A stretch of DNA of 64,000 nucleotides from a bacterium 336/3 (GTDB taxonomy: Bacteria > Bacteroidota > Bacteroidia > Cytophagales > Thermonemataceae), in assembly GCA_001281695.1 (NCBI GenBank), contig LJIE01000001.1, forward strand, positions 3,805,521-3,869,520, written 5' to 3'. The notes beneath the pieces are model-generated. The model saw nothing but the letters and a program-made list of their open reading frames with translations, was not told the origin of the DNA and did no database searches. Position 1 is the first letter of the stretch. Each line of letters opens with the position of its first letter. This document shows, in pieces, positions 8,461 to 63,713 of this stretch. The translations under genes were made by a program, and so were the position numbers.

Positions 8461-8868
8461 ATGGAGAAAACTGTTAAACAAGTCATTAAATTAACCCCAT
8501 TTCTTATTTTATGTATACAAATAGCATATTGTTGGTATGATTTATTAACTGTCGAAGACTCTTTTATTACTATAAAATACTATTTAGCACTTGCTCTATT
8601 AATTATCAATACTGGTATTTATTTCTGGAAATTTGAGAGAGGCTTGTTATTAACAGGCATTATACTTGTGTTATCAACATTTTCTCTTATTCATATAACA
8701 TTTGAAGTAGCTACAAACTCATTTTATATTCAGATTGGTAGTTTAAAAATCTCCACACCTGATATTCATGGATTTTCTCTATTAGTTCTAATTGGATATT
8801 GTATTGTAAACTATAATATTATTAAAATGATGAGAGTAAAATTAGCCTTACTTTTAAAAAAACTTTAA
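8461..8868 (+). CDS. Small four-helix membrane protein, unknown function
   Basis: 135 residues, four bases after the previous stop, so probably the third gene of the uvrA transcript. Four hydrophobic stretches (about residues 10-27, 38-56, 61-79 and 103-121) indicate an integral membrane protein with both ends short. No motif is recognised. The last residues are basic (MRVKLALLLKKL), consistent with a cytoplasmic C-terminus. The gene is complete and in good frame; a function cannot be assigned. Confidence 0.6.
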   Translation: MEKTVKQVIKLTPFLILCIQIAYCWYDLLTVEDSFITIKYYLALALLIINTGIYFWKFERGLLLTGIILVLSTFSLIHITFEVATNSFYIQIGSLKISTPDIHGFSLLVLIGYCIVNYNIIKMMRVKLALLLKKL

Positions 8869-51494: not shown

Positions 51495-52187
51495 ATGAGT
51501 GCGAAAATAAAAAACCCTAACAATGATGAAGAAGCAAAATTCAATTTAGGTGATATTGTTGTCCTTAAAAGTTTTGCTATTTATAGCCACAAAATCAAAG
51601 ATAAATTTCACTTTGACCAAACAGCTCCAATCAATGTATCTCCATTTATGATTGTCATTAGAGCAGATTTAAACACCTCTAATTATCGAACAGATTGTTT
51701 TCAAAGCCAAGATTTTGTTCGGTATCGTTGTATGTGGTATAGCCCAAGTAAAGGTGATTTTCAAGAAGATGTATTTTTTGAAAGCTTACTTATGAGAGTA
51801 AAATCTTATAAAGGGGAAAGTTTTGAGTCTAGTAAATCACTATGTGATGTATTTAAATATGGTGAAGCAGCTATTTTTAGAACAAGAGATTTAGAAATGT
51901 CAAAGGTATTTCCAGAGCATAACCCACATGGCAGATTTAAAGAGGTTGCAAACTTTATTCCTCCAGATTTAGTGATGGCAGGTGTAAAAATTGCTAAAGA
52001 CATAGATAAAGATGGTAAAGAACAAAATATTATTCTTGAAAAAAACAAAAAAGTACATCGCTATGATTGTGAAAACAGAATAATAGGTCGATGGTTTAGT
52101 ACAACTCAAGGAAAATTTCTAAAGAGAGATTTTATCCCTCATGCTTTGGAAGCAATGAAGATAAATGCTAACTTTGAAGAAGGATAA
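51495..52187 (+). CDS. Unrecognised protein upstream of the RT locus
   Basis: 230 residues, no signal peptide, no membrane helix. The start AKFNLGDIVVLKSFAIYSHK and MIVIRADLNTSNYRTD look like a small beta-barrel domain; two Cys pairs are present but not in a metal-binding pattern. A -7-like TAGGTTGG lies 27 bases before the ATG. No family recognised. Its position 400 bases before the RT gene on the same strand makes it a candidate accessory protein of that system, but the long gap with its own hairpins argues for a separate transcript. Confidence 0.6.
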   Translation: MSAKIKNPNNDEEAKFNLGDIVVLKSFAIYSHKIKDKFHFDQTAPINVSPFMIVIRADLNTSNYRTDCFQSQDFVRYRCMWYSPSKGDFQEDVFFESLLMRVKSYKGESFESSKSLCDVFKYGEAAIFRTRDLEMSKVFPEHNPHGRFKEVANFIPPDLVMAGVKIAKDIDKDGKEQNIILEKNKKVHRYDCENRIIGRWFSTTQGKFLKRDFIPHALEAMKINANFEEG

Positions 52188-52594: not shown

Positions 52595-54502
52595 ATGAAA
52601 AAGCAGAAAAATAAAAAAATAAAAGACGAAATCTTTGATTCTTTAAAGCCCAAAGGTTATACTCATCTTACAAAGAAAATAGCAAATCCAAATAAGAGCA
52701 ATATAAAAAAAACTCTTCATCAGATTTCAAATAAAAATTATATTCTGAAGTATAATTTTTTTCCCTTACTAAAATATACAAAAATTGAACAAAAATATAA
52801 GAAAGTAACAGATAAAGAACTTGAGAAATCATTAGAAAAATCGGTATTAGCTCTTGGGGCAAATGATAAACTTAAAAGAAGAAACTCGAAAAAAGAGCGT
52901 ATTATAGAGTACCCTACTCATCAAGATTCTTTAATTTACTCTTTTTATTCAAAACTTCTTCTTACACCTATTTATGAAAATGTCTTAAAGTCTAATCATT
53001 GTTTAAATGAAAGCGTAATTGGTTATAGGAAAATACCCCTTGATAAAAATAAAGGAAAAAGTACAATACATTTTGCTAAAGATGTATTTGAGCATATTCA
53101 GAAATTTGGTGAGTGTTATGTAATTACCTTTGATATTAAAGATTTTTTTCCCTCAATTAATCATCATAAACTTTTTGATAGTTTACTCAGCCTATTGAAA
53201 AGCTATTTAAAAAATCCATCCCCTCTTAATCTAAAAATCAAATCTCCTTATAAAAACCTCGTTAGCAAGATTGTTAATAACAAAAAAAACCAATGGCAAA
53301 CTAATATTACAGAAAATAGGCTTCCTGAAGACTTATATAAAATTTTTAGAGCTGTTACTCAATATGCCTGTATAGATTTACAACATCTAAAAAAGCCTAA
53401 TGGTAAACGGCTTTTGACAGAACAAAGGCTTTCTGAAATCAGTAAAAAGGGTATTGAAGCATTTTTTACTAACCCCAAAGAAATGCGAGATTATTTAAGA
53501 GAAAATAAAATTATCATTCACAAAAATAAAGAGAAAGGTATCCCTCATGGATTACCCATCAGCTCGCTTTTCGCTAATATTTACATGAAACCTTTTGATG
53601 AAGCTATTTTAAGCAAATTGAAAGATATAAACTCTGAATTTCTATATAGACGTTATTCAGATGATATGATTGTTGTTTTACCTAAAATAGAAAGCTTTGA
53701 TTTACAGAAACTCCAAAATCTTTTTAAAAATGAGTTAAAAAAAATAGAATTAGAATTATCTACCTCCAAAACTGAATGTTTTGAGGTTTGTAAATTAGAA
53801 AATAGTTTGCTGAGTGTAAAGAAAAAAGTTACCTTAAAAAATCTTATTCAAAAAAAATCTAATGAAAATAATGAGGAATGTCTTTTTTGTAAAAATACAA
53901 GTGAGCATACAGAAAATTATAGTTTAGTAACTGAATGGAGAACTCTTCCTATTACATATTTAGGGTTAGAATTTCATGGAGAAGTTGAAGCTAATAATAA
54001 TAGCAAAAAAAGACTTGATGTAAGGCTTAAAAACTCTTCTATTCAGAAATTTTATAGAAGAATGGATATAGCTATTCAAAGACAGGTAAAAAGAGCATTT
54101 ATCAAACATTTGAGAGATTTAACCTTCAAACCTATTGTTTTTAGAAGACAATTATATCGTTTATTTAGTAAGGAAGGTGCTTTTTGTAAATATAAAGATG
54201 CAGAAACCGAAAAAAACAAAAGAAAGAAAACTATCAAAAAAGCTAAAATCTTAGACTATGATAACTCTAAAGGCTATTTTGTCTATTCAAATAAAAAGAA
54301 AAAGACTAATATATCTGCAAAGCATATGGGCAATGCGATTACTTTTGCAAGACGTGCAGATTTCATTTTTTTTGGTGAGAGGCAAGAGGTTATGTTTAAG
54401 CAATACAGAAATGCAAATAAAATTTTAGAGTCAAGAATAGCTTATTGGGTAAATAAATATCAAGAAAATATAACAGATTTAGAAATCAAGTATAATTTAT
54501 AA
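52595..54502 (+). CDS. Unassigned (Abi/DRT-like) reverse transcriptase
   Basis: 635 residues with a complete RT core: FDIKDFFPSIN (catalytic Asp180), GIPHGLPISSLFANIYM and YRRYSDDM (Tyr354-Asp357). A CLFC pair follows at about residue 430. The C-terminal about 170 residues are helical and basic (RQVKRAFIKHLRDLTFKPIVFRRQLYRL). There is no maturase, endonuclease or integrase domain, no NAxxH or VTG motif as in retrons, and no group II intron boundary, so I place it in the unknown-group/Abi/DRT set, many of which block phages. Base use is more AT-rich than the flanks, which suggests transfer. Ends in a hairpin beside a tRNA gene. Confidence 0.85.
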   Translation: MKKQKNKKIKDEIFDSLKPKGYTHLTKKIANPNKSNIKKTLHQISNKNYILKYNFFPLLKYTKIEQKYKKVTDKELEKSLEKSVLALGANDKLKRRNSKKERIIEYPTHQDSLIYSFYSKLLLTPIYENVLKSNHCLNESVIGYRKIPLDKNKGKSTIHFAKDVFEHIQKFGECYVITFDIKDFFPSINHHKLFDSLLSLLKSYLKNPSPLNLKIKSPYKNLVSKIVNNKKNQWQTNITENRLPEDLYKIFRAVTQYACIDLQHLKKPNGKRLLTEQRLSEISKKGIEAFFTNPKEMRDYLRENKIIIHKNKEKGIPHGLPISSLFANIYMKPFDEAILSKLKDINSEFLYRRYSDDMIVVLPKIESFDLQKLQNLFKNELKKIELELSTSKTECFEVCKLENSLLSVKKKVTLKNLIQKKSNENNEECLFCKNTSEHTENYSLVTEWRTLPITYLGLEFHGEVEANNNSKKRLDVRLKNSSIQKFYRRMDIAIQRQVKRAFIKHLRDLTFKPIVFRRQLYRLFSKEGAFCKYKDAETEKNKRKKTIKKAKILDYDNSKGYFVYSNKKKKTNISAKHMGNAITFARRADFIFFGERQEVMFKQYRNANKILESRIAYWVNKYQENITDLEIKYNL

Positions 54503-54549: not shown

Positions 54550-54623
54550 TGGTCCCACTTGGAATCGAACCAAGCACCTACTGATTATGAGTCAGTTGCT
54601 CTAACCGAATGAGCTATAGGACC
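54550..54623 (-). tRNA. tRNA-Met (CAT)
   Basis: Complete cloverleaf on the minus strand: acceptor GGTCCTA / TGGGACC, D-arm AGCTC...GAGC, anticodon stem CTGACT-CAT-AATCAG, T-arm with GGTTCGATTCC. The anticodon CAT gives methionine (or lysidine-modified Ile; identity elements were not tested). The CCA end is not encoded. Confidence 0.92.
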
Positions 54624-56612: not shown

Positions 56613-56658
56613 TTATTTTTTTGATAATTGAGTTTTTATTTAGAATATTGCCCGTAGA

Positions 56659-56876
56659 GATTTGAAATACCTTGCTTCTTAGCAATAAGATGAATGATGT
56701 TTCGTCATTCTTGAAAATTTGTAACAAATACTTCACTACATACTATCTTTATGGTGACTAAGGTACCCTAGTGGGTGTTTTCTGTGTTACCACCAAGTGC
56801 TTAAACACCCACTAGGGTACCTTAGTCTTGGAGTTGATAGATATAGTCCAGAGAAAATACGAAGTTCCTTCAAATC
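56659..56876 (+). ncRNA. Retron msr-msd RNA, copy 1
   Basis: a1 GATTTGAA (56659-56666) pairs with a2 TTCAAATC (56869-56876), with CTT/AAG continuing the duplex inside; G56674 is a candidate branching guanosine. The msr part has TTGCT/AGCAA, then GAATGA-TGTTTCG-TCATTC (56692-56710), whose loop equals the RT-recognised loop I recall from retron Ec86, then ATTTG/CAAAT. The msd is a perfect 25-bp stem (56756-56780 with 56803-56827) and a 22-base loop. Predicted, not observed, RNA; msDNA ends not defined. Confidence 0.85.
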
Positions 56877-56882
56877 CACTTT

Positions 56883-56921
56883 AACATCTAAAAAGTACAT
56901 TTTTTTAGATGTTATTTTTTT
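56883..56921 (+). terminator. Terminator after ncRNA copy 1
   Basis: AACATCTAAAAA / TTTTTAGATGTT, 12-bp stem, then T7. Confidence 0.88.
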
Positions 56922-56969
56922 GTTAAAAAATTTTGAAGTTTTAAATTTTATTCAGATATTGCCCATAGA

Positions 56970-57188
56970 GATTTGAAAATACCTTGCTTCTTAGCAATAA
57001 GATGAACGATGTTTCGTCGTTCTTGAAAATTTGTAACAAATACTTCACTACATACTATCTTTATGGTGACTACACCACCCTATCGGGTGTTTCCTGTGTT
57101 ACCACCAAGTGCTTAAACACCCGATAGGGTGGTGTAGTCTTGGAGTTGATAGATATAGTCCAGAGAAAATACGAAGTTCTTTCAAATC
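56970..57188 (+). ncRNA. Retron msr-msd RNA, copy 2
   Basis: a1 GATTTGAAA (56970-56978) with a2 TTTCAAATC (57180-57188); candidate branch G56986. Hairpin GAACGA-TGTTTCG-TCGTTC (57004-57022) differs from copy 1 by a compensated T-A to C-G change. The msd stem is again a perfect 25 bp (57068-57092 with 57115-57139), though six stem positions (6-9 and 16-17) differ from copy 1; the loop is identical except its first base. This covariation shows that pairing, not primary sequence, is kept. Confidence 0.87.
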
Positions 57189-57196
57189 ATTATCTC

Positions 57197-57240
57197 AATC
57201 CTACAAAATAAAAAAACTTGTTTTGTAGGATTATTTTTTT
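57197..57240 (+). terminator. Terminator or attenuator before the retron RT
   Basis: AATCCTACAAAA / TTTTGTAGGATT, 12-bp stem, T8 tail ending 24 bases before the RT ATG. RT expression needs read-through or a promoter in the short gap. Confidence 0.88.
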
Positions 57241-57263: not shown

Positions 57264-58763
57264 ATGGCCGAGCAACTTACACGCCAACAATTATACGATC
57301 GCATCCGTGAAACATCTAAAGATGCTTATATTCTTGAAGAAATGAAACGTTTGGGTTTTTGGGAGAATTCTTCTCAACCTACCCTCTCCGAAGCCCTAAT
57401 ACAACGTGAAGCTACTCTTCAAAAAGAGCTCAACGAGTTACTTGATAAGCAACGTAAATACAACAGTCGTGAGCAACTTTTACGTGATATGCGTAAACAA
57501 AAGCTCAAGCTTTCTAAAGAAAAGCAAGCTGAAACAAAAAAACGACAAGAAGAAAAAAGACAACTCAAAGCCCAGAAGTGGGTTGAATCTAAGCAAAAAG
57601 AAATTGTTTATTTGGGCGAAAGTGTTTCAGGAGGTTTGAATGAAAAAACATCTAATCAAGCTCTTTTAGCAAAATATCAGCTATCCGATTTTGCTTCTGT
57701 ACTTGGGCTTGCAGAAGCCATGAAGGTTTCTTTAGCTCAATTAAGGTTTTTGGCTTTTCATAGAGCTGTTTCTAAAACAAGTCATTATCATTTTTATTCA
57801 GTACCCAAGAAATCAGGAGGAAAACGACTGATTTCAGCTCCAAAGCCTCTACTCAAAAAATGCCAACACTGGATATTAGAATCCATTTTATATAAAATTA
57901 CTCCTAGTGAACATGTACATGGTTTTGTTCCTAAAAAATCCATTGTTACCAATGCAAAGCCTCACCTCCAAAAAGATATTGTTGTCAATTTAGACTTAAA
58001 AGACTTTTTCCCTTCTATTTCTTACAAACGAGTAAAAGGGCTTTTTGTCAATTTAGGCTATAGCGAACAGCTAGCTACAGTTCTAGCACTTATTTCCACT
58101 CATTACGAAATGGATAAAGTCAATGTAGACGGAGATGTTTACTATGTACAAAAAGGTGAAAGAGTATTGCCACAAGGTTCTCCTGCAAGCCCTGCTATTA
58201 CAACACTCATTGCTTACACAATGGATAGACGTTTACAAGGTTTGGCAAAAAAATTAGGGTTTACCTACACTCGCTACGCTGATGACCTTACATTTTCTAC
58301 AGACGCAAGCAATGAAGGTAATATTGCTACTTTGCTTTATTTTACAAAACAAGTAGTAGAAGATGAAGGCTTTACTGTACACCCTGATAAAACGCATGTT
58401 ATGCGTAAAGGCTCACAACAAAAGGTAACAGGAGTTGTAGTAAATGACAAACTGGGCGTAGATAGAACAATTTTAAGAAAATTCAGAGCCTTTTTACACC
58501 AAGTAAGCCAATTTGGTTGGGGTAAAAACAAATGGGGAAATGGAGACAATCCTAGACAAAGTGCTTTGGCATTTGCTTCTTTTGTAATGATGGTCGATAA
58601 AGAAAAAGGTACAAAATTGATGAATCAAATCAAGGCTATTGCAGATAGCTCTGTGGTTACAGAAAAGAAAAAAACTGTTTCACAAGAACCCCAAAAACAA
58701 GTTCCAGAAGAAAAAACAAATACCTCTACCCCTGCTTCTCAGGATTGGTGGGATATATTCTAG
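57264..58763 (+). CDS. Retron-type reverse transcriptase
   Basis: 499 residues. An N-terminal charged, coiled-coil-like extension (about 1-165) precedes the RT. Core motifs: LDLKDFFPSI (Asp244), QGSPASPAITTL, YTRYADDLTFS (Tyr338-Asp341). Retron-specific signatures are both present: NAxxH as N230-A-K-P-H234 and VTG at 388-390. Retron RTs make a branched RNA-DNA (msDNA) from the adjacent msr-msd RNA and form an antiphage complex with effector proteins. The short C-terminal tail is Lys/Gln/Glu-rich and ends DWWDIF, perhaps a contact site. Followed by two genes in the same direction. Confidence 0.95.
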   Translation: MAEQLTRQQLYDRIRETSKDAYILEEMKRLGFWENSSQPTLSEALIQREATLQKELNELLDKQRKYNSREQLLRDMRKQKLKLSKEKQAETKKRQEEKRQLKAQKWVESKQKEIVYLGESVSGGLNEKTSNQALLAKYQLSDFASVLGLAEAMKVSLAQLRFLAFHRAVSKTSHYHFYSVPKKSGGKRLISAPKPLLKKCQHWILESILYKITPSEHVHGFVPKKSIVTNAKPHLQKDIVVNLDLKDFFPSISYKRVKGLFVNLGYSEQLATVLALISTHYEMDKVNVDGDVYYVQKGERVLPQGSPASPAITTLIAYTMDRRLQGLAKKLGFTYTRYADDLTFSTDASNEGNIATLLYFTKQVVEDEGFTVHPDKTHVMRKGSQQKVTGVVVNDKLGVDRTILRKFRAFLHQVSQFGWGKNKWGNGDNPRQSALAFASFVMMVDKEKGTKLMNQIKAIADSSVVTEKKKTVSQEPQKQVPEEKTNTSTPASQDWWDIF

Positions 58764-58795: not shown

Positions 58796-61700
58796 ATGAA
58801 ACTAATTCAACAAGTTAAGCTATTTTTTCAAGAAGGCACTTCAGATAAAGTGTATGAAATAGATTTGTGTGAAGTAGGTACAGACCAGTATGTCGTAAAT
58901 TTCAGATATGGCAAACGTGGTAGCAATCTAAAAGATGGCACAAAAACGACTACCTCTGTCAACCTTACCAAAGCTCAGGCTGTATTCAATAGTTTGCAAA
59001 AAGAAAAAACAGATAAAGGCTATCAAATAGCCACAGACGACTCACAAACTACAGTAGTATTGCCTAAACCTACAAAAGCACTTACCAATACATTGGAAGG
59101 TTCTATTTTGCAACGTTTACAAGATGCCATAGATGGGAAGAACTCTTTTAAAACTGTTTGGAAAATAAGCCGTGTAGCTTGGAGGGTGGGTATAATGAAA
59201 TTCCAAGAAGCTGTTCCTTATCTTCTAAAACTTGTAGATAAAGGTGATAAAATGCAAAAGTATTGCGTTTTATGGGCATTGGCTCGTTGTGCTGACTCAA
59301 AAGCTCTCTCTACATTCCAGACAAATTATGCAAATAACTCTAATGATGACAATGCTCGAAAAATAGCATTAGAAGGCTTATTGAACGTTTCACCTGCTCC
59401 AGAAAAACAGAAATTAGTAAATACACTCATTGAGAAGCTTCCACAAGCCATGCAAGACTGTTTTGCTAGCAACCGTGTGGCAGATATTGAGCCAATTGTA
59501 CTTTCAAGAATCACTGAAAAGCAAACCGAATATACTTTTTTAGAAACATTGTACTTGCTTGCTAATGAGCATCCTATTATCTCTAAAATTTTAGCAAAAG
59601 CTTTGCAGGTAATGCCCATTCGTCCACCTCATTTCAAACATATTCGTTCTATTTATAAATTGGCAGAATTAAGGGATGATGTTTTGATACTTGGGACTCT
59701 TTCATATCTTTTTGAAAGTAAGCCTTATATGTATCAGGGTGTTAAGAAAAGTTGGAGAAGTTCAAAGTATGTGTCAGAACTTGGTACATATATCAAAGTA
59801 AAAGATGAAATCAAAAGTAAAAACTCTAAAATTGCCTTTTCTGATTCCACAAAAGCCTATTTACAAAGAAGAGATTTGAAACGTCTCAAAGATGCAGGTA
59901 ACCAAACAGCACAAGAATATGTAAAATTGGCTGCTGCTATTCTACTTTCTTATACCAAAGAAGACTACACAGAGGCTTATATGGAATCTCAAGGTTATGG
60001 AAGCTGGGATTATAAAGCAAAAAAATATACACATACATTTATAGAACGTCCTGAGTGTGCCAATAAACTTTTACTCAATTTAATACTCAATGGGAACAAC
60101 AAATCTATGCGTTTTACTGAAAACAAATGGGTAAAAGGAGAACGCATTTCAGAAACATCTTCTTCATGGTATTATAATGGAAGTGCAAAAAAGATAGAAA
60201 ATGTTAAAACGCCTATCCAAAGAGTAAAAGAATTGAATAGTACACCTGAAAGAGTTGATTTATACCCTGAAAAATGGGATGAATTTCCACAGGTATATAT
60301 TCAGCTTCTGATGCAAGGTAAAAATGATTTGGTACATGAATTTGCTTATAAAAATCTAAAATTTCACCCCAAATCGAAAGAATTGATTTCTAAGATAGAC
60401 AAGTCTATGATTAAGAGTCTAGTAACTTCTAATCATTCTATTCCTGTCTTTTTTGGTTCAGAAATCATCAAAGAACGAATGGCAAGTGGTATTGATAACG
60501 AACTCATTATGTTCATGTTAAACTCTCCAGTATATGAAGCCAGGGAGTTTGCCATTACTGTTATCAATTTACAACCTAACCATTTTTTAGAAGATACTTC
60601 ATTTATTACTTCTATTCTGTTTAGTTCTTACAAAGAGGTTAGAACGTGGTCTGAAACATTTTTAAATACACATACTTTACAAGCCGAAAAATGGCAATTG
60701 ATTGTTGGTAAATCCATTGCTAAAATGCTTGGTGAAACGTTTGATAGCAAAGCATTGGCTTATGCTCATTTTGCTTTGAAAAAATATGCTGATTTGGCTT
60801 TAGAAAAGCTAAGTTGGAATGTAGTATTAGAACTTTTAGATTCTCCTATTTCTGAAAACAAAGTATTTGCAAGTGATATATTATTGCTCAAATCCAATTC
60901 TATCAAGGCAGAAGATATTCCATTTAAAATTGTAAGTGGATTTTTGGGTGCTGAATCGGAACAGATGCGAAATAATGGAATGGCTATTTTTGCAAAATAT
61001 AGTGACCAAAATCTCCTCAAGGCTCATGAAATGCTAGGACAAATGGTTCTTTCGCCTCATGCAAGCCTCAGAGAGTCTGCTATTGGTATTGTTAAAAAAC
61101 TTATTCCCCAAAGCACAGAATTCAGCAAACAGATTTGTACATCGTTGCTAATGGCTCTTCGAAGAAAAGAAACTTATGAGAACGCTCATGAGTCGGTAGC
61201 CAACTTGTTACTCAACGATTTAGAGAGATATTTGAAAGAGGTAGAACTCAAAGATGTATTAGATTTAATTTATGGCAATTACAGACAAGGACAATTGGTA
61301 GGTTTCCATATTTTAGAAAAATACATCCATACAGCCGATATGACTTTACGCCAAGTAATTGCCCTTGCTAATCATGAGCTTTTGGTTATTCGTCATTGGG
61401 CAATTGATTTCTTTGAGAAAAACATATCCCGTATTCGTTATGAACGCAATGAAGCTATCAGACTTTTAGATGCCAAATGGGATGATACAAGGCTTGCAGC
61501 TATGAATTTCTTTAGAAATCATTTTACGAAAGATGATTGGGATGTGGATAGTCTGGTGAGCATTGCAGACGCCGTAAGATCTGATGTAGAGAATTTTGGT
61601 AAAGAATTGATTATGAAATTCTTTGAAGAGGAAGATGGAGAACAATATTTAACCATGCTCAGTCAGCACCCTTCTGCATCTATGCAACTTTTTGTAACCA

Positions 61701-62008
61701 ATTATTTAGAGCGTTTTGCTTCTAACAATTTGGAACGCCTCAAAACATTAGAATTTTTCTTCCGTTCTGCTCTGATGCGTGTAAACCGTGGTCGTATTGC
61801 TAAAGACAGAATTGTTGACTTCCTAGAAAAAGAAGCTACAAATTCTGAGGAAACAGCTTTTTGGTTGGTAGCTCTACTCAATGATATGGTCAATACATTG
61901 GCTGTTCAAGATAAAGCCTCTTTTATTCAGTTGTTACAAAAACTTAAGCATTTACATAAAAACTTAAAAGTGGCTATCACATTTGAACCTTTAGTCATTG
62001 AACAGTAA
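58796..62008 (+). CDS. WGR-domain HEAT-repeat protein, retron partner
   Basis: 1070 residues. Residues about 1-75 are a WGR-type domain (QQVKLFFQEGTSDKVYEI; YVVNFRYGKRGSNLKDG, with Tyr38 in place of Trp). The rest is almost wholly alpha-helical with HEAT/ARM-like units (VPYLLKLVDKGDKMQKYCVL; LRESAIGIVKKLIPQ; LAMNFF-type units near residue 905). WGR domains bind nucleic-acid ends in PARPs and occur in E. coli MolR/YehI-like proteins. It starts 32 bases after the RT stop and is probably the effector or an adaptor. No nuclease or ATPase motif seen. Confidence 0.82.
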   Translation: MKLIQQVKLFFQEGTSDKVYEIDLCEVGTDQYVVNFRYGKRGSNLKDGTKTTTSVNLTKAQAVFNSLQKEKTDKGYQIATDDSQTTVVLPKPTKALTNTLEGSILQRLQDAIDGKNSFKTVWKISRVAWRVGIMKFQEAVPYLLKLVDKGDKMQKYCVLWALARCADSKALSTFQTNYANNSNDDNARKIALEGLLNVSPAPEKQKLVNTLIEKLPQAMQDCFASNRVADIEPIVLSRITEKQTEYTFLETLYLLANEHPIISKILAKALQVMPIRPPHFKHIRSIYKLAELRDDVLILGTLSYLFESKPYMYQGVKKSWRSSKYVSELGTYIKVKDEIKSKNSKIAFSDSTKAYLQRRDLKRLKDAGNQTAQEYVKLAAAILLSYTKEDYTEAYMESQGYGSWDYKAKKYTHTFIERPECANKLLLNLILNGNNKSMRFTENKWVKGERISETSSSWYYNGSAKKIENVKTPIQRVKELNSTPERVDLYPEKWDEFPQVYIQLLMQGKNDLVHEFAYKNLKFHPKSKELISKIDKSMIKSLVTSNHSIPVFFGSEIIKERMASGIDNELIMFMLNSPVYEAREFAITVINLQPNHFLEDTSFITSILFSSYKEVRTWSETFLNTHTLQAEKWQLIVGKSIAKMLGETFDSKALAYAHFALKKYADLALEKLSWNVVLELLDSPISENKVFASDILLLKSNSIKAEDIPFKIVSGFLGAESEQMRNNGMAIFAKYSDQNLLKAHEMLGQMVLSPHASLRESAIGIVKKLIPQSTEFSKQICTSLLMALRRKETYENAHESVANLLLNDLERYLKEVELKDVLDLIYGNYRQGQLVGFHILEKYIHTADMTLRQVIALANHELLVIRHWAIDFFEKNISRIRYERNEAIRLLDAKWDDTRLAAMNFFRNHFTKDDWDVDSLVSIADAVRSDVENFGKELIMKFFEEEDGEQYLTMLSQHPSASMQLFVTNYLERFASNNLERLKTLEFFFRSALMRVNRGRIAKDRIVDFLEKEATNSEETAFWLVALLNDMVNTLAVQDKASFIQLLQKLKHLHKNLKVAITFEPLVIEQ

Positions 62009-62063: not shown

Positions 62064-63713
62064 ATGCTTTTTAATTATAAATACGGAGGACAAACGAATG
62101 TAATGAGCAATGCAAATCAGACAGCAATGTCATTTGCTCCTGATACATTGCGTGAGCCTACTTTTTTTGTAGGGAAGTTGGATAAAAAGATTTCTTTCAG
62201 GGAAGCTATTTCTGCATTGCATCATGTAGTAGTTTCCGATTTGCGTTTTAAGCCTAAAGATAAAACAGCTTACAAAGAGTGGGCAGCTGCCCAAGAATCT
62301 ATTTGGCTTTCAGAATATATGGATTCTTTGCAAATAGACAAAGTAAATGAACGAGTGAGCCAAGTACGTCAAGAATTAAACGAAGTTTATAAAGAAAAAG
62401 ACAAACATTTAGGACCTTTCAACAAAGCCAAAAAAGAATATTTCAATTTCCTTTATGAAAAAGATAAAGAAGCTTGGTTTGTTTTAGACCCTGTGATTAC
62501 GGTACATCCAGATGAAGTATTTTTTGAGTGTTTCAGTCAGGATGAATCTACTTATGGAAAATTAAGCTGTAGTTATAATGTTTTCAAAGAAATTAATGAG
62601 TTTGAGTGTGGAACAACTAATATAGATTACTCTTCAACACTTTATAATGAATTTCAGAAAATCAGAAATTATAAAGAAACTGATTTCAAAATAGACCCCA
62701 GTGGTTTTGAAGTACAAACTACCAATGAAGATTCTTACAAAGAAGTCAAAATTGATTTACCAGACTCATGGGTAAGAGGTTTTTTACAAGTGAGTTCGGC
62801 GATGACTATGCCTGCAAGTACATTTCATTTGCATCCATTGGATGTATTTAGTTTGTGTCAGTTCTTGAGACGTTTTAAAGAAAAAGTAAGCCCTCGTTCA
62901 TTAAGGTTCATTTTAGAGCCTGATAAACCTATCAAAATTATTGTAGAGCCTTGGAATAAAGAATTGGTTTTCAAACGTTCTATTTATGGTGGTGATAAGC
63001 CACAAGAAGTTAGACTTTGGGGAAGAAGACGTTTGTTAATTTTAGAAAGACTGATACCTATTGCAAAAACTTTTAAAGTAGTGTTATTGGGTTCAGGTTT
63101 GCCTTCGTTTTTTATTGCTGATTTAGAAAATGATATGTCTTTTACACTTGGTCTTTCAGGCTGGACAGCCAACGATTGGTCAAGAGCTGGAAACTTCGAT
63201 TTGATGGCTCCCAGAGCAGAAGTAGATAGTTATACACAACAAAAAGTATTCAATGGTCTCAAACAAAACTGGTTTGAAACTTCAGGGGCTTTGGCTCGCC
63301 GTTTGAATTTAGATAACAATGTAGTTGCTTCGGCTTTGGCAGCTTATACACAAGCAGGCAGAGTGATTTATGATTTGAATTTGGGTGTTTATCGTGTACG
63401 AGAGCTTGCAAGAGAGCCCTTACCTATGGAGCAACTCCGTTTTGCAAGCCCACAAGAAGAAAAAGCAACAAAATTTCTAAAAGAAAACAAAGTACAAGTT
63501 ACAACCGAACAAAAAGGTAATGGCATTTTATTGAAAGGCAAAGTGATTGATGGTAGTAGAACTTACCATACGACTGTTCTGATTGATAATGATGACCGAA
63601 TCATTGATGCTACTTGCGAGTGTGGTTTCTTTTTGGTCAATAAACTCCGAAAAGGACCTTGTGAACACATTTTGGCAACCCGAATGTATTGGAACTTAAT
63701 AAAATCTTCGTAA
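62064..63713 (+). CDS. SWIM zinc-finger protein, retron partner
   Basis: 549 residues. The C-terminus carries a SWIM finger: Cys518-x-Cys520-x12-Cys533-x-His535 (DATCECGFF...GPCEHILATRM). Upstream is a helical region and a winged-helix-like part (GALARRLNLDNNVVASALAAY). SWIM fingers bind DNA or proteins, and SWIM genes accompany WGR/MoxR-type genes in other conflict loci (E. coli yeh cluster). An ATG 13 codons in is an alternative start. Last gene of the cassette, 55 bases behind the WGR gene and before a terminator. Confidence 0.85.
   Translation: MLFNYKYGGQTNVMSNANQTAMSFAPDTLREPTFFVGKLDKKISFREAISALHHVVVSDLRFKPKDKTAYKEWAAAQESIWLSEYMDSLQIDKVNERVSQVRQELNEVYKEKDKHLGPFNKAKKEYFNFLYEKDKEAWFVLDPVITVHPDEVFFECFSQDESTYGKLSCSYNVFKEINEFECGTTNIDYSSTLYNEFQKIRNYKETDFKIDPSGFEVQTTNEDSYKEVKIDLPDSWVRGFLQVSSAMTMPASTFHLHPLDVFSLCQFLRRFKEKVSPRSLRFILEPDKPIKIIVEPWNKELVFKRSIYGGDKPQEVRLWGRRRLLILERLIPIAKTFKVVLLGSGLPSFFIADLENDMSFTLGLSGWTANDWSRAGNFDLMAPRAEVDSYTQQKVFNGLKQNWFETSGALARRLNLDNNVVASALAAYTQAGRVIYDLNLGVYRVRELAREPLPMEQLRFASPQEEKATKFLKENKVQVTTEQKGNGILLKGKVIDGSRTYHTTVLIDNDDRIIDATCECGFFLVNKLRKGPCEHILATRMYWNLIKSS

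What the first reader, a model, noticed from the sequence alone, without database searches (positions are those of the whole stretch)
56645..57188. Retron with two tandem msr-msd RNAs whose DNA stems have diverged by paired changes
Two near-identical ncRNA units precede one retron RT. Both keep a1/a2 ends, a TGTTTCG-loop msr hairpin and a perfect 25-bp msd stem. Six of 25 stem positions differ (AGGT to CACC at 6-9, GT to TC at 16-17) and every change is matched on the other arm, while the 22-base loop differs at one base. Twelve linked substitutions in one hairpin, against a handful elsewhere, indicate selection for pairing with pressure to vary the stem. The cell may therefore make two msDNAs, perhaps as decoys for two phage factors or as a two-part sensor. 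I know of no described retron with this arrangement.
Basis: partly seen in the sequence, partly recalled or inferred. Interest (0 to 1): 0.92.

Follow-up and report, generated by a model that had tools for sequence, protein, structure and literature searches.

The report
Type XIII retron with two msDNA templates
A bacterial immune system that copies a small RNA into DNA carries two such RNAs here, alike except for one long hairpin stem, and a similar pattern is seen in relatives, as if a shared scaffold carried interchangeable probes.

Summary
Two 92%-identical msr-msd units (16 substitutions in 212 nt) precede one retron reverse transcriptase. Fourteen of the 16 form seven compensated base pairs: six in the 25-bp msd stem, one in the msr hairpin. 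The locus is a type XIII retron (RT_XIII, WGR_XIII, SWIM_XIII). Each unit ends in its own terminator-like hairpin.

It is not an assembly duplicate or a one-off. Of 30 loci with a unit upstream of the RT (the window's included), 7 hold two or three; in four genomes units lie elsewhere than upstream of the RT. In four of five lineages compared, the stem diverged significantly more than the rest of the unit, mostly pair for pair. Yet relatives within a genus can share identical stems while the scaffold differs (0/49 against 16/127). Stems look like maintained alleles on a common scaffold.

Best reading: the cell makes two msDNAs whose stems are interchangeable recognition elements. That function is inferred. 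Insulation against mispairing between copies is a serious rival. Prior art: Retron-Nex1 of Nannocystis is reported to have duplicated msr-msd without a nearby RT. Compensated, allele-like stem divergence was not found in print in the searches made.

The parts
56659..56876 (+). msr-msd unit 1 (a1 56659-56666, a2 56869-56876)
   Evidence: covariance-model match in L078
56970..57188 (+). msr-msd unit 2 (a1 56970-56978, a2 57180-57188)
   Evidence: covariance-model match in L078
56692..56710 (+). msr hairpin of unit 1, TGTTTCG loop region
   Evidence: helix 1, 100% of cells paired
57004..57022 (+). msr hairpin of unit 2; one pair changed T-A to C-G against unit 1
56756..56827 (+). msd long hairpin of unit 1: 25-bp stem, 22-nt loop
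57068..57139 (+). msd long hairpin of unit 2: 25-bp stem, 22-nt loop, six pairs changed on both sides against unit 1
56882..56914 (+). terminator-like hairpin (13 bp) followed by a T run, after unit 1
   Evidence: not listed by the consensus scan (which asks for at least 3 G-C pairs)
57197..57232 (+). terminator-like hairpin and T run after unit 2, not similar in sequence to the first
56620..56650 (+). possible weak promoter of unit 1 (TTTG ... GAATATTG)
   Evidence: inference from the sequence and position; fails the strict TTG-N17-23-TAnnTTTG scan
56932..56961 (+). possible weak promoter of unit 2 (TTTG ... AGATATTG)
   Evidence: inference; fails the strict scan
57264..58763 (+). retron reverse transcriptase, type XIII, with an N-terminal extension before the RT domain
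   Evidence: PADLOC RT_XIII E 7e-180; RVT_1 at residues 180-392; NAKPH, YADD and VTG in the translation
58796..62008 (+). WGR plus HEAT-like repeat protein (WGR_XIII), 1070 aa
   Evidence: PADLOC WGR_XIII E 0, HEAT-ARM_XIII 4.3e-34; Pfam WGR
62064..63713 (+). SWIM zinc-finger protein (SWIM_XIII), 549 aa
   Evidence: PADLOC SWIM_XIII E 1.4e-237; Pfam SWIM

Best explanation
This is a type XIII retron that encodes two msr-msd RNAs on one scaffold. The RT recognises the shared scaffold (msr hairpin, ACCTTGC region, lower msd stem, loop motif) and copies both RNAs, giving two msDNAs that differ almost only in a long, perfectly paired stem. The stem is a swappable recognition element that something reads by sequence: a phage factor that modifies, cuts or binds the msDNA, or the WGR or SWIM partner. 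Carrying two stems widens what one defence complex can respond to. Shown by sequence: retron type, two units, compensated stem divergence, a similar pattern in relatives, and allele-like stem conservation. Inferred: production of two msDNAs, stem as recognition element, defence function.
For: Type XIII genes. Seven of 30 loci with a unit upstream of the RT hold 2-3 units. Stem against the rest of the unit (loop included in the rest) within a genome: window 12/40 vs 3/110, G083 16/40 vs 5/110, G116 u1-u2 20/40 vs 8/110, and G046 16/39 vs 17/111 although its two units lie on different contigs. Pooled over one pair from each of five lineages (these and G021) OR 5.9, p = 6e-20 (treats sites and lineages as independent, which is not established). 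Changed pairs keep pairing through changes on both sides in the window (6 of 6), G083 (8 of 8) and G116 u1-u2 (10 of 10). G-T pairs are 13 of 815 in long stems and 54 of 315 in the msr hairpin, as expected if the DNA form must pair. Stem alleles are shared across species: class A identical in L083, L085_u1 and L086_u1 (0/49) while the L083 core differs from either at 16/127 (p = 0.004); class B identical in L085_u2 and L086_u2, and 2/49 away in L081_u1. Covariation over 37 distinct units: 18 of 18 long-stem pairs changed on both sides somewhere, 97.4% of long-stem cells paired; whole structure 96.4%, slid versions 31-47% (the alignment was fitted to the model). Precedent for msDNA as the sensed part: phage methyltransferase acting on Ec86 msDNA, SSB binding Eco8 msDNA (PMC13158370, part 1 of 2 of the text); N6-adenine methyltransferase as trigger of Asa1 and Squ1 (PMC12548924, passages).
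Against: No msDNA, RNA or phage data exist here. Two of the three units in G116 share nearly the same stem (1/40), and in G084 the second unit is a decayed copy with nearly the same stem (3/40). In G021 the excess in the stem is not significant (p = 0.08). Pairs that fail to pair or do not align occur in G028 (4), G021 (6), G046 (6) and G084 (1). The loop also differs in several pairs (G116 u1-u2 8/32, G028 7/32, G046 9/33). 23 of the 30 loci have one unit. No exact match to a 21-nt piece of either window stem arm in the viral contigs. No common methylation motif was noticed by eye (not tested). Stem switching also occurs in single-copy loci (L070 vs L076), so it is not specific to duplicates. 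Only five lineages are compared, four of them in one RT clade that may share an old duplication. One covariation measure (further pair types) was not exceptional: 57 of 500 shuffles reached it.
Confidence: 0.45

Rival explanations
1. Insulation: stems differ only so that two near-identical long hairpins do not pair with each other in RNA, msDNA or chromosome, or recombine. Stem sequence has no specific target.
For: In silico, replacing unit 2 by a copy of unit 1 makes cross-pairing dominate in two of five tandem RNAs (L084 62 and L085 58 expected cross pairs), while the real sequences give 0.00 in all five. In the genus of these two (g25) only the first unit of a pair has the promoter motif, and the scan found no hairpin longer than 6 bp with a T-rich tail after the first unit, so the pair is probably co-transcribed.
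Against: The same control gives only 0.42, 0.55 and 1.85 cross pairs for the window, L081 and L072. In the window a terminator-like hairpin separates the units. G046 has different stems in units on different contigs. G116 units 2 and 3 keep nearly the same stem. Identical stems across species with a diverged core are not predicted.
Confidence: 0.25
2. Dosage and drift: extra copies raise msDNA yield; stems drift neutrally under a pairing-only constraint, helped by palindrome-templated mutation that copies one arm onto the other.
For: Paired long-stem columns carry little sequence information across the family (0.03-0.57 bits) yet stay paired; compensated changes come in runs (AGGT to CACC), as templated copying would give (inference). 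Single-copy loci also switch stems (L070 vs L076).
Against: Stems are identical or nearly so (0/49 to 2/49) between species whose cores differ by 7-13%, which a fast neutral stem should not be; but only the L083 comparisons are individually significant. The one-pair change in the short msr hairpin of the window is also compensated.
Confidence: 0.2
3. Only one unit is functional; the other is a relic or a silent copy.
For: In G084 one of two dispersed units is visibly decayed (three non-standard pairs and a 2-nt gap against the model, 98.5 against 157.6 bits). No strict promoter match before either window unit.
Against: Both window units keep every structural element, and 14 of the 16 substitutions between them are in compensated pairs; decay would break pairs.
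Confidence: 0.1

Closest known systems
Type XIII retrons (PADLOC RT_XIII, WGR_XIII, SWIM_XIII)
   Same: All three proteins match their type XIII models. 23 of the 30 loci with a unit upstream of an RT_XIII gene have a single unit of the same ncRNA architecture.
   Different: Two msr-msd units in place of one; gene order ncRNA-RT-WGR-SWIM (12 of the 30 loci), not WGR-SWIM-ncRNA-RT (18 of the 30).
Retron-Nex1 (Ne160) of Nannocystis exedens
   Same: [quoted passage not shown] its reference 60, Lampson and Rice 1997, not seen).
   Different: There explained as possible duplication and insertion by a distant RT or other element. Here units are tandem upstream of the RT, helices intact, with compensated stem divergence. 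Sequence relation to Ne160 not tested.
Retron-Eco1 (Ec86)
   Same: Closest solved RT by sequence (E 4e-41); its msDNA stem-loop engages the effector and is modified by a phage Dcm-like methyltransferase (PMC13158370, part 1 of 2).
   Different: One msr-msd (recalled); effector release leads to NAD+ degradation, whereas here the partners are WGR and SWIM proteins of unknown activity.
Retrons Asa1 and Squ1
   Same: Triggered by a phage N6-adenine methyltransferase; a GATC motif lies in each ncRNA (PMC12548924, passages).
   Different: No mention of tandem or second ncRNAs or of WGR among the words searched in that paper's main text.

Membership tests
Retron | Reverse transcriptase of the retron kind (YADD, NAxxH and VTG motifs; motif names recalled) | tested here: met
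   Translation has YADD, NAKPH, VTG; retron RT families and structures are the best matches
Retron | Adjacent structured RNA with a1/a2 ends, msr hairpin and msd hairpin | tested here: met
   a1/a2 pairing read from the sequence and in the predicted folds
Retron | Branched RNA-linked msDNA is made | not testable with these tools
   Needs msDNA isolation
Retron | Anti-phage activity through an effector | not testable with these tools
   No assay; effector activity of WGR or SWIM protein unknown
Type XIII retron | RT_XIII, WGR_XIII and SWIM_XIII genes together | tested here: met
   WGR_XIII and SWIM_XIII found in 12 of 12 RT-bearing genomes checked
Rfam RNA family | Match to a curated RNA family at gathering score | tested here: not met
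   Only a tRNA in the window
Duplicated msr-msd as in Retron-Nex1 | Homology of the ncRNA to Ne160 | not tested
   Ne160 sequence not at hand

The most novel reading that the evidence does not exclude
A multi-probe retron: one RT and one effector set served by a small repertoire of msDNAs on a homogenised scaffold, with stems kept as distinct, exchangeable recognition alleles (tandem or dispersed, perhaps even recombining by half-stems as L084_u2 suggests), comparable in logic to a cassette-based sensor array.
Probability: 0.35. Interest if true: 0.88.

Novelty: new variant of a known kind. Interest (0 to 1): 0.74.

Why it matters
[quoted passage not shown] Here nature has set up the comparison: same scaffold, same RT, same partners, two stems. 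Stem alleles that recur across species give a ready set of swaps to test whether stem sequence sets phage specificity. If so, one retron could carry several specificities. It also offers a natural scaffold for making two DNAs with one RT.

Tried and rejected
Assembly duplicate: rejected; the copies differ at 16 of 212 positions, have dissimilar terminators, and tandem units occur in six other loci.

Stem as a copy of a phage sequence: 21-nt pieces of both window stem arms gave 0 exact matches in viral contigs. Exact matches only, so mimicry is not excluded.

Stem as a methylation bait with a fixed motif: no shared palindrome noticed by eye; not tested.

Type XIII RT elsewhere: viral contigs, 9 pattern stretches, none a relative; phages, two Staphylococcus phage records with a distant RT (34% identity over 56% of the query); plasmids, 7 records at E <= 1e-40, one of them over 99% of the query at 45% identity, Methylobacterium.

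Structure of the SWIM protein: AlphaFold2 with two sequences gave mean pLDDT 46, too poor for a fold search, so no effector activity is proposed. No solved structure matches the WGR protein at E <= 0.01.

Rows dropped or limited. Covariance model R1 over 51 sources gave 40 matches; L021 and L022 are named copies of the G084 and G135 contigs (equal contig lengths), so 39 distinct units in 31 of 49 loci (48 genome loci and L023). The L107 unit is not upstream of its RT, which leaves 30. The 18 loci without a match are L062, L063, L077 (units elsewhere), L087-L098, L106, L108 and L023; L087 and L108 have little upstream sequence. Of the 12 loci with ncRNA first, SWIM was not seen in the fetched stretch of L080 (it is on another contig) and L083 (contig end); of the 18 with WGR-SWIM first, WGR was not seen by tblastn in L068, L070, L075 and L076. 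In one search the script cut the hairpin short in three units (L074, L079, L137); the pair L075/L079 should be ignored. Searches use different region limits, so their counts differ. The RT tree held 48 of 50 proteins; L080 and L099 fell out because the reading met an early stop (L080 has a frameshift near residue 31, seen on its named copy L022; L099 has three stops). The controls are mononucleotide shuffles; terminators were found after 16 of 45 units against 8, 6 and 10 in three shuffles, so that scan alone is weak.

Full report
What is there. Two msr-msd units lie at 56659-56876 and 56970-57188, followed by an RT (57264-58763), a WGR/HEAT protein (58796-62008) and a SWIM zinc-finger protein (62064-63713). 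The three proteins match PADLOC RT_XIII, WGR_XIII and SWIM_XIII, so this is a type XIII retron. The RT carries YADD, NAKPH and VTG and is closest among solved structures to Ec86 RT. Rfam gave no match to the RNA at gathering scores. Upstream is rimM with its own terminator-like hairpin. The two units are the only good copies found in the genome: besides them one search listed one opposite-strand match of the palindrome itself and one weak 78% match over about 50 nt on another contig, and the covariance-model scan found only the two.

The observation. The repeat is 212 nt, 92% identical. Of 16 substitutions, 12 are six compensated pairs of the 25-bp stem, two are one compensated pair of the msr hairpin, one is in the loop and one in a2 (pair assignment read from the sequence). 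Stem against rest: 12/38 vs 3/157, p = 1.8e-7. Both RNAs fold with z near -8. Each unit is followed by its own hairpin and T run; the two hairpins are not similar.

Relatives. RT_XIII was found in 41 of 390 genomes of the order (E <= 1e-100), 3 of 395 of the class (E <= 1e-130) and 6 of 395 of the phylum (E <= 1e-130), each count including the own genome. I fetched all 48 distinct loci, oriented them on the RT and found units by iterated nhmmer and by a covariance model built from 24 of those units. Thirty loci have a unit upstream of the RT: 23 have one, six have two (L073, the window's L078, L081, L084, L085, L086) and one has three (L072). All seven multi-unit loci have the order ncRNA-RT-WGR-SWIM (7 of 12 loci with ncRNA first; 0 of 18 with WGR-SWIM before ncRNA-RT) and fall in one clade of the midpoint-rooted RT tree. 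These loci are not independent, so the contrast is descriptive. The 12 loci L087-L098, with RTs about 33-40% identical to the window's, gave no unit.

Dispersed units. In a scan of 390 genomes of the order with the model (stricter filters), 26 had matches at E <= 1e-6; all 26 are among the 41 with RT_XIII. In G084 the RT stands alone on one contig, WGR and SWIM are on two others, and two units on a fourth, 150 kb apart. In G031 and G046 WGR, SWIM and a unit form a cluster about 65 kb from the RT, and G046 has a second unit on another contig. In G111 the unit lies beyond the 3' end of the RT gene on the other strand of a short contig. The G084 contig with the RT has the length of a contig of a metagenome-assembled Cytophagales genome, so binning errors are possible. 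Duplicated msr/msd without a nearby RT has been reported for Retron-Nex1 (PMC6868368, passage).

Stem against scaffold. In the 11 within-genome pairs from nine genomes the stem is significantly more diverged than the rest in eight (p from 3e-8 to 0.0014). The exceptions are G116 units 2 and 3 (1/40 stem), G021 (p = 0.08, all parts diverged) and G084 (second unit decayed). Four of the eight are from one genus and two share a unit of G116, so they are not eight events. Pooling one pair per lineage (window, G083, G116, G021, G046): 76 stem differences against 34 expected, OR 5.9, p = 6e-20, taking sites and lineages as independent; four of these five lie in one RT clade, and whether their duplications arose separately is not settled. 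Changed pairs are mostly changed on both sides; pairs that fail to pair or align occur in G028 (4), G021 (6), G046 (6) and G084 (1), and one-sided changes in G116 (1 in each of two pairs), G046 (2) and G084 (2). The loop also differs in some pairs (G116 u1-u2 8/32, G028 7/32, G046 9/33) though hardly in the window (1/32).

Alleles. In genus g25 two stem classes recur and a third is seen once. Class A is in L083, L085_u1 and L086_u1 (identical), L082 (2/49) and L084_u1 (5/49). Class B is in L085_u2 and L086_u2 (identical) and L081_u1 (2/49). Class C is L081_u2. L084_u2 lies 8/49 from L085_u1 (A) and 8/49 from L085_u2 (B); reading the letters it looks like an outer half of B joined to an inner half of A. 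At the same time the two units of a locus share the scaffold: L084 0/127 and L081 4/127 within the locus, against 13-17/127 between those two loci. L085 and L086 are less homogenised (10 and 8 of 128 within the locus). In the core tree the unit pairs or trio of the window, L072, L081 and L084 group by locus, but the second units of L085 and L086 group with each other, not with their own first units. For L083 against L085_u1 or L086_u1 the stem is less diverged than the core (0/49 vs 16/127, p = 0.004); the other four cross-species comparisons of one class show no significant difference either way. Against a special role of duplication, single-copy L070 and L076 differ at 19/40 of the stem, 14/32 of the loop and 5/78 of the rest, so stems can switch in single-unit loci too.

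Pairing as DNA. Over 37 distinct units all 18 long-stem pairs change on both sides somewhere and 97.4% of cells pair, while paired long-stem columns hold 0.03-0.57 bits of sequence information. G-T pairs are 13 of 815 in the long stem and 54 of 315 in the msr hairpin (long-stem pairs taken from predicted folds). A G-U pair in RNA becomes a mismatch in the cDNA, so avoidance of G-U suggests that the DNA hairpin is what must pair; palindrome-templated mutation would give the same result.

Transcription. A Bacteroidota-type promoter pattern (recalled consensus, TTG-N17-23-TAnnTTTG) precedes 14 of 45 units, against a mean of 0.5 and at most 2 in 20 shuffles. In g25 it precedes only the first unit of a pair, so the pair is probably co-transcribed. 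In the window neither unit has a strict match; each has a weaker similar arrangement and its own terminator-like hairpin, which suggests separate transcripts.

Mechanism. I favour stems as recognition elements on a common scaffold, because msDNA is the sensed part in other retrons (PMC13158370, part 1 of 2 read; PMC12548924, passages), because stems recur as alleles, and because dispersed units in G046 also differ most in the stem. Insulation is the strongest rival: identical copies would mispair in silico in two of five tandem RNAs. Drift with templated compensation is next. None of these is tested.

Novelty. Paper searches covered open-licence PubMed Central papers only; the classification paper I looked for by DOI, which I recall as the source of types I-XIII, was not held. 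Within that limit I found no report of tandem msr-msd with compensated stem divergence, but Retron-Nex1 shows that multiple msr-msd units are not new in themselves.

Noticed in passing
window 52595-54502: A second reverse transcriptase, best PADLOC match Drt2 (E 5.5e-92), about 2.2 kb upstream of the first msr-msd unit: two RT-based defence systems close together.
   Followed up: partly
window 51495-52187: Protein matching PADLOC RTasYodC (E 1.3e-17, description DRT), just upstream of the Drt2-like RT.
   Followed up: no
window 54550-54623, strand -: tRNA gene between the Drt2-like RT and the rimM region; a possible integration site.
   Followed up: no
L123 4569-4723 and L124 4766-4922 (G084); L135 4959-5116 and L136 5029-5185 (G046); L137 4957-5114 (G031); L107 1294-1450 (G111): msr-msd units far from, or not upstream of, their type XIII RT, so presumably used in trans.
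   Followed up: yes
L077 about 8612-8692, strand -: Perfect inverted repeat with 31-nt arms and a 19-nt loop upstream of the solitary RT of G084; no match to the retron RNA model.
   Followed up: no
G116 contig C49 5031-6662: Second SWIM_XIII homologue (E 3e-171) apart from the retron locus of that genome.
   Followed up: no
L146 (Methylobacterium bullatum plasmid NZ_LR743510.1): WGR, SWIM, one ncRNA unit and a type XIII-like RT on a 2.8-Mb alphaproteobacterial plasmid, outside Bacteroidota.
   Followed up: partly
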